From Tenggerimyces flavus (GTDB lineage: Bacteria > Actinomycetota > Actinomycetes > Propionibacteriales > Actinopolymorphaceae): 64,000 bases of DNA. Numbering within the stretch: the first letter of the stretch is position 1; each line of letters opens with the position of its first letter. Location of the stretch: positions 2,790,001 to 2,854,000 of the forward strand of contig NZ_JAFBCM010000001.1 in assembly GCF_016907715.1 (NCBI RefSeq), written 5' to 3'. Below, in pieces: positions 4,318 through 62,329 of the stretch. The notes under the pieces are model-generated. The model was given only the letters and a program-made list of their open reading frames with translations. It searched no databases and had not been told where the DNA came from. Both the position numbers and the translations under genes were made by a program.

Positions 4318-4370
4318 TGGGTGGGGGGCACCCTGGTCCCATAGGTTCGGACGAGGGTGCCCCCGACCCA
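4318..4370. repeat. AACCTAT-loop hairpin, copy 1
   Basis: Arms of 22 nt with two mismatches (TGGGTGGGGGGCACCCTG... / ...GAGGGTGCCCCCGACCCA) close on a 9-nt loop, CATAGGTTC, which reads GAACCTATG on the other strand. With copy 2 it forms a direct duplication of about 67 bp at a period of about 107 bp, in the convergent gap between guaB3 and the RND gene. It may act as a two-way terminator. Confidence 0.8.
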
Positions 4371-13601: not shown

Positions 13602-13654
13602 TGGGTCGGGGGCACCCTCGTCCGAACCTATGGGACCAGGGTGCCCCCGACCCA
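13602..13654. repeat. AACCTAT-loop hairpin, copy 3
   Basis: Arms TGGGTCGGGGGCACCCTCG.../...CAGGGTGCCCCCGACCCA close on GAACCTATG. It is the inverse orientation of the copies at 4318 and 4425. It sits between divergent genes, so a terminator role does not fit this copy. Confidence 0.8.
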
Positions 13655-20029: not shown

Positions 20030-20047
20030 CCCGCGCCCGCGTTTTGT

Positions 20048-20094
20048 ATGAAGGGCACCTTCATTCGAACCTATTGAATGAAGGTGCCCTTCAT
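20048..20094. repeat. AACCTAT-loop hairpin, copy 4
   Basis: Perfect 19-bp arms (ATGAAGGGCACCTTCATTC / complement) close on GAACCTATT. Arm sequence differs from copies 1-3 except for GGCACC/GGTGCC, while the loop is kept. It lies 19 bp past the metallophosphoesterase stop and may end that transcript. Confidence 0.85.
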
Positions 20095-20104
20095 TCAAAC
20101 CAGG

Positions 20105-20376: not shown

Positions 20377-20431
20377 TTGGATGAAGGGCACCTTCATCCA
20401 AACCTATTGGATGAAGGTGCCCTTCATCCAA
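20377..20431. repeat. AACCTAT-loop hairpin, copy 5
   Basis: 23-nt perfect arms (TTGGATGAAGGGCACCTTCA...) close on AAACCTATT. It differs from copy 4 by paired changes on both arms, so base pairing is conserved. Confidence 0.85.
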
Positions 20432-38325: not shown

Positions 38326-38337
38326 ACTGGGAGGATC

Positions 38338-38376
38338 GTGGAAACTTTGGGTCGCTATAGCGCCCATAGTTTCCAC
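38338..38376. repeat. CGCTATAGCG-core hairpin, copy 1
   Basis: Arms GTGGAAACT / AGTTTCCAC around TTGGGTCGCTATAGCGCCCA. It begins 12 bp after the nucleotidyltransferase stop. Confidence 0.8.
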
Positions 38377-38410
38377 AGTCATCGGTCAGCTGGCGGCCAT
38401 GGGATGAGCG

Positions 38411-38447
38411 CGAAGACTTTTGGTCGCTATAGCGCTCATAGTCTTCG
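38411..38447. repeat. CGCTATAGCG-core hairpin, copy 2
   Basis: Arms CGAAGACT / AGTCTTCG around TTTGGTCGCTATAGCGCTCA. The core is as in copy 1, but the arms are different and complementary. ATGAGCGC (38404) and GCGCTCAT (38432) offer a rival stem. Confidence 0.8.
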
Positions 38448-38610
38448 GGCTAACGAGAATGGCGACGGCCACCTCTGGCGGTGGCCGGGGTGTGGCCGCG
38501 GGAGGTGAGTGCGTGAAGCTGAGCGTCTTTGGATCTCAGCGCTGCTGCTCGTGCCGGGTCGCCACGGGGCACGGGTGGGCAGGCGGAGCCTGCCCTTAAC
38601 GACCTGCGTC

Positions 38611-38750
38611 GGGCCGCCGAGAGGCTCAATGTCAAGGGTCAGGTCGCTCCGCGACCTGATCTCGCACAAACTCGCCCACCGGCCGCGCCAGCCATGCACT
38701 GCCGCGAGTTTGGTCGAGACGCGAAGCGCCCTTGACATTGAGGGCGGCCC
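38611..38750. repeat. three-stem palindromic element E1
   Basis: The outer stem GGGCCGCC / GGCGGCCC continues, after a 6-nt bulge, into CTCAATGTCAAGGG / CCCTTGACATTGAG (perfect 14 bp). Inside are two hairpins, TCAGGTCGC/GCGACCTGA and CAAACTCGC/GCGAGTTTG. No ORF with family resemblance crosses it. Confidence 0.75.
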
Positions 38751-38830
38751 ATAAACTCCCGGGGCGACCCATCAGCAGGCGATCTCGACTCCGCACTGGG
38801 ACAGCTCCCCGCACAAGGTGGAGCTGCGCG

Positions 38831-38986
38831 ACTGACAACCGAGGCGATGACTGCACGCCTCATCGCGCGGGGGTGTTGCGCGGATGACAGCCGAGCGGGT
38901 GGCCGCTCCTCTCGTCGCGCGGAGATACTGGGCGGACCCCAGTCGAGCCGGTGGCCGCACACCTCATTGCGCGGAGGTGCTGCGCG
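38831..38986 (+). repeat. three degenerate tandem repeats of about 52 nt
   Basis: Units start near 38831, 38884 and 38936. Each contains a CGAG(C/G)...GGTGGCC-like part, then CCTC(A/G)T(C/T)GCGCGG and a T(A/G)CTG(G/C)GCG end. The unit length is not a multiple of three, so it is unlikely to be coding. Confidence 0.6.
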
Positions 38987-39088
38987 CCAGCGTGGCGAGA
39001 GCTCTTCTTTGGTCAGCTCTTCACTGTTCCGACGGGCGCTCTTCGGGAGCTTGGAGCTCTCGGGTCTGTGGCGGCGGTCGATGGTGGT

Positions 39089-39190
39089 GGCCGGTCCGGG
39101 GCGCGTCAAGGGCGCCTCCCAGGGGCGCTTCGCGCGCGGTGAGAGGCGTCGCTTCGCGATCTTCGACCCTTGACTCGCCCCGGCCCGGCC
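39089..39190. repeat. palindromic element E2
   Basis: 24-nt arms with two mismatches, GGCCGGTCCGGGGCGCGTCA... and its complement, ending in TCAAGGG / CCCTTGA as in E1. The interior is rich in GCGC/CGCG repeats. Confidence 0.75.
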
Positions 39191-39545
39191 ACATGTTTTT
39201 CACGCGCCGCCCCCTCCCCCCGGAACAGGTGTCCCGGGACAGGCCTGCTTGGCCCTAGGTCTGCTGCCGTGCTCGCGTCGCTTGTGGAGCCCCGGTCTCT
39301 TGTCGTGCAGATGAAGCCGGGCGTGGCCGCGTGACATCCCACCTCCTCTTCCCACCCTGTTTCACCCTCTTCTTGCCTCTCTGAACGCCTCTGCCGCAGT
39401 CGGTCAGGACCGGTATGCCGATCTTGCGTACATGCCGCGGGAACTGTGCGGGATAATGGGCGATCGAATCGACACGCGTTGGCGGCGTGGTCACCGAACC
39501 ACGGTGTGAGTCGTCTCGCACAGATCACAGGAAGGGAGTGCGCGC
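39191..39545. other. gap upstream of the DUF3117 gene
   Basis: No gene recognised. GATAAT at 39452-39457 is a good -10 candidate for the DUF3117 gene, leaving a leader of about 85 nt. AGGAAGGGAG sits 6-15 nt before its ATG. Confidence 0.45.
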
Positions 39546-46807: not shown

Positions 46808-46868
46808 CTCTACGCGGGGTGTATCCCACGTAGAGCGGCAAATGATCATGTAAACATGATCATTTGCC
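46808..46868. repeat. double-hairpin 3' element, copy D1
   Basis: Read with the minus-strand MmcQ gene: GGCAAATGATCATGT / complement (perfect 15 bp, AA loop, 46837-46868), then CTCTACGTGGG / CCCGCGTAGAG (46808-46835). The MmcQ stop codon lies inside the first hairpin. It probably ends transcripts of both convergent genes. Confidence 0.8.
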
Positions 46869-47237
46869 GTCGCTGGTCTCCGCGTCCAGCTGGGCGAGGA
46901 GCTTCTTCGGGGCGATCTGGCGATACGCGTCCTCGATGAGCTCCTCGATCCGGTCCCAGTCGGCCGGCACGTCGAGGTAGATGCCGATCCAGCCGCGGTG
47001 GCCTACGTACGGCGGCCGGTAGTAGCGCTCGGGATCCGTCGCGATCAGCTCGGTCTGCACGCCCTCGCCCGCGGCGGCCCAGATCCCGACGCGGTCGTCG
47101 TGGTGCTGGTTGGCGTACGAGACGAACACCTTCTTGTCGCGGACGAACCAGGTCGGCTCGCCGTGGCTGAGGCGCTCGGTGGCCTCGGGCAGCGCGAGAC
47201 AGAGCTTCCGGATCCGGTCGAGCGGGTCGCTGGCCAT
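46860..47237 (-). CDS. MmcQ/YjbR family protein
   Basis: 125 aa from the ATG at 47237. It is a small single-domain cytosolic protein of the MmcQ/YjbR-like (CyaY-like fold) family. The start has LDRIRKLCLALPEATERLSHG, the centre KVFVSYANQHHDDRVGIW, and the end HRGWIGIYLDVPADWDRIEELI with the conserved GWIGI.LD. Some members are tied to DNA binding or mitomycin resistance, but no general function is known. Upstream residues in frame (to 47276) are rejected because a -10 box ends 7 nt before this ATG. It is divergent from the glucan synthase gene, with a shared promoter. Confidence 0.88.
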   Translation of the reverse strand: MASDPLDRIRKLCLALPEATERLSHGEPTWFVRDKKVFVSYANQHHDDRVGIWAAAGEGVQTELIATDPERYYRPPYVGHRGWIGIYLDVPADWDRIEELIEDAYRQIAPKKLLAQLDAETSDGK

Positions 47238-62263: not shown

Positions 62264-62329
62264 GGGGGCAATGATCATGTATACATGATCATTGGCCCCT
62301 TTACGTGGGGTAGACGCCAGGTAGAGGGG
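62264..62329. repeat. double-hairpin 3' element, copy D2
   Basis: CAATGATCATGTATACATGA...ATTG (perfect 26-bp palindrome, 62269-62294) is followed by CCCCTTTAC / GTAGAGGGG (62296-62329). It has the same order and orientation relative to its upstream gene as copy D1. Confidence 0.8.

What the first reader, a model, noticed from the sequence alone, without database searches (positions are those of the whole stretch)
38338..38447. Twin hairpins with invariant CGCTATAGCG core and swapped arms
Two adjacent hairpins share GGTCGCTATAGCGC-CAT, while arms are GGAAACT/AGTTTCC in one and GAAGACT/AGTCTTC in the other. Multiple paired changes keep the stem. In copy 2 ATGAGCGC and GCGCTCAT can form a rival stem that would break the first, a possible switch.
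Basis: seen in the sequence. Interest (0 to 1): 0.6.

Follow-up and report, generated by a model that had tools for sequence, protein, structure and literature searches.

The report
Repeated hairpins at actinobacterial gene ends
The two hairpins belong to a family of long, dispersed DNA palindromes whose two arms change together and which, in related bacteria, mostly sit where two genes end facing each other, so they are probably two-way stop signals for transcription rather than an RNA switch.

Summary
Two adjacent hairpins (38338-38376, 38411-38447) share GGTCGCTATAGCGC-CAT and carry different, internally matched arms. The host genome holds 24 places of this family in 16 loci. A wider model finds the same hairpin in 6 of 8 family genomes, with tens of copies in several. 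In 41 aligned copies, 16 of 20 stem pairs change on both sides (covariation 0.488 against 0.214 shuffled, 0/500). The proposed rival stem does not covary and is complete in 4 of 19 copies, so the switch is not supported. In relatives 28 of 54 classifiable copies lie between convergent genes, against 29 of 212 gaps in one relative. There is no orientation preference and no U-tract. At orthologous junctions the hairpin stays about 83% identical while its 30-nt flanks are near shuffled background. Best reading: U-tract-less, bidirectional 3'-end (terminator) hairpins that spread as palindromic repeats. In the window's genome they sit at one edge of dispersed noncoding repeat islands. They lack the GTAG tag and the consistent Y1/RAYT partner of REP elements. 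Termination itself is inferred, not shown.

The parts
38338..38376 (+). hairpin A (type A arms GTGGAAACT/AGTTTCCAC, core GGTCGCTATAGCGCCCAT); model match 38327-38387
38411..38447 (+). hairpin B (type B arms CGAAGACT/AGTCTTCG, core GGTCGCTATAGCGCTCAT); model match 38399-38459
   Evidence: no model match near orthologues
38326..39545 (.). about 1.2-kb noncoding repeat island whose left edge is the hairpin pair; pieces recur with other copies of the hairpin
38463..38825 (.). island module M2 (contains CTCAATGTCAAGGG / CCCTTGACATTGAG inverted repeat at 38625-38638 / 38729-38742)
38825..38986 (.). island module M3, about 50-nt tandem units
   Evidence: (offset self-matches), reading
39038..39330 (.). 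island module M4, also found dispersed without the hairpins (L041, L042, L045)

Best explanation
The twin hairpins are two members (a type A and a type B) of a dispersed family of 20-24-bp hairpins found in the window's genome and in five of seven other genomes of its family. Pairing and position are kept while arm sequence drifts. The most likely action is as a strand-neutral, U-tract-less ('I-shaped') block at transcript 3' ends: transcription from either side produces a long stable stem that stops the polymerase or fixes the 3' end, mainly between convergent genes. The copies reached their sites by duplication or dispersal, because unlinked copies in one genome share arm sequence, and were then retained where they served as gene-end boundaries. 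In the window's lineage they are also carried at one edge of dispersed noncoding islands. SHOWN: hairpin, dispersal, arm covariation, gene-end placement, site retention among relatives, no U-tract, no orientation preference. INFERRED: actual termination, and the way copies spread.
For: Covariation in own copies and across genera: 16 of 20 pairs changed on both sides, 144 cells against 53 shuffled, 0/500. Model R2 matches in 6 of 8 family genomes at E<=1e-4 and in none of 800 kb sampled from G004 and G059 at E<=1. Of 60 fetched places, 54 could be classified: 28 convergent, 21 tandem, 5 divergent; background 29 convergent and 58 divergent of 212 gaps in G004; Fisher 1.5e-8 and 0.004. Without G005: 18 of 33 convergent. 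An unbiased scan of long hairpins in G004 and G059 shows the same placement (22 of 39 classifiable intergenic hairpins convergent), the typical terminator position. In 24 orthologous pairs hairpin identity is 0.83, against 0.57 and 0.59 in 30-nt flanks and 0.55 shuffled. U-poor downstream sequence: 14 of 120 strands have 3 or more T of 8, about the 12% expected. Experimental parallel: highly structured U-lacking ends, and bidirectional ends with longer stems and less read-through, in Streptomyces clavuligerus (passages of PMC8269248).
Against: No transcript data. In the window's own genome the placement is weaker: 5 of 14 loci convergent (p = 0.07) and 3 divergent, so many own copies may be passengers of the islands. 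A family-wide apical motif (GNYYATRR-like) is not needed by a plain terminator. Orthologous hairpins are only modestly more alike than non-orthologous family members (20 of 24 above the mean, mean z 0.86), so part of the retained similarity is family resemblance or concerted evolution. Avoidance of divergent gaps is also expected of a harmless insertion element. The ORF caller was home-made.
Confidence: 0.6

Rival explanations
1. A REP/MITE-like selfish palindromic element: the hairpin is the substrate of a transposase acting on single-stranded DNA, copies accumulate where insertion is least harmful (gene ends), and pairing is kept because the enzyme needs it.
For: Copies share arm sequence at unlinked sites; type A and B pairs at 72-81 nt; strong amplification in G005 (128 rows) with more similar copies within that genome (0.81 within, 0.66-0.70 between) and conserved flanks there (reading); own copies ride on dispersed islands.
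Against: Y1 transposase PF01797 is absent from five of the six genomes that carry the family (G000, G002, G003, G004, G006) and present in G007, which has no hairpins. No GTAG tag (1 of 60 flanks). Orthologous sites keep the hairpin (9 of 14 examined G004 places have a fetched orthologous place with a hairpin; my tally). No target-site duplication was sought.
Confidence: 0.28
2. A cis-acting regulatory RNA switch formed by main and rival stems.
For: Rival stem is complete in copy 2 and in 3 further copies; one copy (L010) is predicted to prefer it.
Against: No covariation of the rival stem; random orientation towards genes (tally); predominantly 3' placement; no Rfam match.
Confidence: 0.03
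3. A DNA-level protein-binding site (nucleoid, gyrase or chromosome-organising type) that needs a cruciform or palindrome and is excluded from promoters.
For: Strand-neutral: G.T to A.C counts 12:12 outside G005; conserved apical bases; gene-end placement.
Against: Arm sequence varies widely while pairing stays, unlike a duplex-read site; no binding protein known.
Confidence: 0.09

Closest known systems
U-tract-lacking 'I-shaped' and bidirectional terminators of high-GC bacteria (Streptomyces clavuligerus HS-U-lack and Bi-TEPs, PMC8269248, passages read)
   Same: Long stable stem, no U-tract, gene-end position, works in either direction
   Different: Those are, as far as I read, individual sequences; this is one homologous, dispersed family with a conserved apical motif and covarying arms
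REP / GTAG- and CGTC-tagged palindromes and REPINs (PMC3733652 and PMC3116915, passages read)
   Same: Intergenic palindromes in many copies, heterodimer pairs, subfamilies with complementary stem changes
   Different: Stems 20-24 bp rather than mostly 6-9 bp, no GTAG tag, no consistent RAYT/Y1 partner, pairs are head-to-tail, sites shared between species
Rfam RNA families
   Same: Covarying RNA-like hairpin
   Different: No family matches the window at gathering score or seven relative loci at E<=0.01

Membership tests
REP elements with RAYT | GTAG or CGTC unpaired tag at one foot | tested here: not met
   GTAG/CTAC in the flanks of 1 of 60 places; CGTC/GACG anywhere in the two 14-nt flanks of 14 of 60, no chance level computed and not at a fixed place
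REP elements with RAYT | Y1 (PF01797) transposase in the carrying genome | tested here: not met
   0 in own genome and in G002, G003, G004, G006; 9 in G005; 7 in G007, which lacks the hairpins
REP elements with RAYT | many intergenic palindromic copies | tested here: met
I-shaped (U-less) bidirectional terminator | long stable hairpin without U-tract | tested here: met
I-shaped (U-less) bidirectional terminator | located at gene 3' ends / convergent junctions | tested here: met
   28 of 54 convergent, 5 divergent in relatives; in the own genome only 5 of 14 convergent
I-shaped (U-less) bidirectional terminator | ends transcription in vivo | not testable with these tools
   no transcript data
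riboswitch / RNA switch | conserved alternative helix | tested here: not met
   rival helix without covariation, 446/500 shuffles as high
known Rfam family | covariance-model match | tested here: not met

The most novel reading that the evidence does not exclude
A self-dispersing terminator: a family of hairpins that copies itself to new gene ends without a Y1/RAYT enzyme, is domesticated there as a two-way transcription stop, and keeps a conserved apical loop read by an unknown factor while its arms evolve in concert within each genome.
Probability: 0.2. Interest if true: 0.75.

Novelty: new variant of a known kind. Interest (0 to 1): 0.5.

Why it matters
Terminators are usually thought to arise site by site. 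A homologous, covarying family spread over gene ends in several species would show that transcript ends can be seeded by a repeat. It would give an actinobacterial group with no REP system described in the papers I read a testable case of how palindromes spread and are kept, and a ready set of natural bidirectional terminators.

Tried and rejected
Switch: rejected. Single-locus element tied to the upstream gene: rejected. Y1/RAYT-driven REP: not supported. 'Only in this genome': this was my own reading after (0 of 56 relatives with a 21-nt pattern, up to 2 mismatches); the covariance models overturned it. A tip CTATAG shared with out-of-family genomes (G059, G074, G252, G353, G365, G386): treated as chance plus model bias, because each had one weak match, about 4 are expected at E<=0.01 over 391 genomes, and the unbiased scan of G059 showed no such tip. 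RNA polarity from G.T over A.C pairs: 66 to 19 overall, but the excess sits in G005 (55:7; others 12:12). Replication-strand bias of the family: 7 of 13 own loci with a clear orientation, none. Loop inversion between orthologues: seen in several pairs, left open because the tip orients only 31 of 57 copies clearly. Naming the organism: both genome-contig scans returned 0. Literature searches; no paper on palindromic repeats of this family turned up in them, which does not show that none exists.

Full report
OBSERVATION. Copy A pairs 38338-38346 with 38368-38376, and copy B pairs 38411-38418 with 38440-38447. Both share GGTCGCTATAGCGC-CAT. The region folds far better than shuffles on both strands.

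THE FAMILY IN THIS GENOME. A 61-column alignment of 19 own copies shows 9 of 21 pairs with changes on both sides; the covariation score is 0.265 against 0.158 shuffled, 0/500. Model R1 finds 47 rows at E<=1, which I reduce to 24 places in 16 loci. Eight loci hold two copies (spacing 72-81 nt in five, 137-179 nt in three). Three places are near-perfect palindromes (L025, L028, L095). In most of the rest the 3' side of the tip is one base shorter. Many copies lie at one edge of noncoding islands of about 0.8-1.2 kb, whose modules recur in fixed order. The genome also holds other dispersed palindrome families: 47 long hairpins in 464 kb, 43 of them outside called genes, shuffled control 0.

THE SWITCH. 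The rival helix (columns 6-13 with 34-41) is complete in 4 of 19 copies and does not covary (observed score reached by 446 of 500 shuffles). I reject a conserved switch.

RELATIVES. An exact-type pattern found nothing in 56 relatives, but R1 found weak matches in same-family genomes (11 of 391 genomes including the own one; the six out-of-family ones are near the chance number). The fetched sequences are clear homologues, such as GATTGTGAAGACTTTGGGGTGCTATGGGACCCCAAAGTCTTCACAAT. Model R2 (23 sequences) gives, at E<=1e-4 and with each place often listed on both strands, rows: G000 41, G005 128, G004 59, G006 32, G003 30, G002 27, G001 0, G007 0 (at most 150 candidates per genome were scored, so G005 may be undercounted). 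R2 finds nothing at E<=1 in 800 kb sampled from G004 and G059. I fetched 60 further places, chosen from the top of the printed list. Over 41 aligned rows (39 of those 60 plus 2 own) 16 of 20 pairs change on both sides.

PLACEMENT. With a home-made codon-usage ORF caller, the 60 places fall: convergent 28, tandem 21, divergent 5, and 6 not classifiable. Background gaps of 40 nt or more in G004: 29 convergent, 58 divergent, 125 tandem of 212. Enrichment p = 1.5e-8, depletion in divergent gaps p = 0.004. The background comes from one genome. In tandem contexts 12 copies face with and 9 against the genes (tally). In the own genome 5 of 14 classifiable loci are convergent, p = 0.07, and three are divergent. 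Downstream T content is at background.

SITE RETENTION. Flank comparison shows orthologous sites among G002-G006, for example one junction shared by G002, G003, G004 and G005. Nine of 14 examined G004 places have a fetched orthologous partner. Only listed places were fetched, so this is a lower bound on shared sites and says nothing of junctions that lost the hairpin. In 24 pairs from 11 groups (10 with matches on both flanks, counting L120/L200 inside a group linked through L215) hairpins average 0.83 identity, taking the better of the two tip orientations; flanking 30-mers 0.57 and 0.59; shuffled 0.55. Control: over the 24 pairs of the 10 both-flank groups, orthologues exceed the mean of non-orthologous pairs of the same genomes in 20 of 24, mean z 0.86. 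So there is a vertical signal, but much similarity is family-wide. Own copies share no flank with relatives at the threshold used, and the orthologues of the upstream gene in G005 and G001 have no R2 match nearby.

WHAT IT IS. The combination (strand-neutral long hairpin, covarying arms, no U-tract, convergent gene ends, retention at orthologous junctions, homologous copies at unlinked sites) fits a repeat-borne, bidirectional 3'-end element best. REP-like mobility may explain the spread but lacks the usual signs: no GTAG tag, and no Y1 transposase in five of six carriers. Papers: passages of PMC3733652, PMC12306157, PMC8269248 and PMC3116915; all others were seen as search listings only.

Noticed in passing
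window 46836-46869, 62264-62299: Another palindrome family, ATGATCATGTNNACATGATCAT: 145 places in the own genome, 0 in 56 relatives at exact match. None of those in the 464-kb sample lies in a divergent gap. A diverged version seems to sit downstream of the upstream gene's orthologue in G005.
   Followed up: partly
window 20043-20099, 20377-20431: Palindrome family TTGAATGAAGGTGCCCTTCATTCAA: 282 matches over both strands (up to 2 mismatches) in the own genome, 0 in 56 relatives. Orientation of 45 of 63 exact copies follows the replication direction, taking dnaA at 1,065,125 as origin and the antipode as terminus (p = 9e-4); not separated from gene orientation.
   Followed up: partly
window 4318-4370, 13602-13654, 20043-20099: Two palindrome families with unrelated stems share the loop GAACCTAT.
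   Followed up: no
window 38463-39330: Modular noncoding island with nested inverted repeats whose inner stems are swapped as units between copies, and about 50-nt tandem units.
   Followed up: partly
L187/L228, L195/L217, L200/L215 (relatives): At orthologous sites stems differ by 3-6 compensated pairs (L187/L228 5, L195/L217 3, L200/L215 6) and the tip sometimes seems inverted; suggests conversion between copies or arm recombination.
   Followed up: partly
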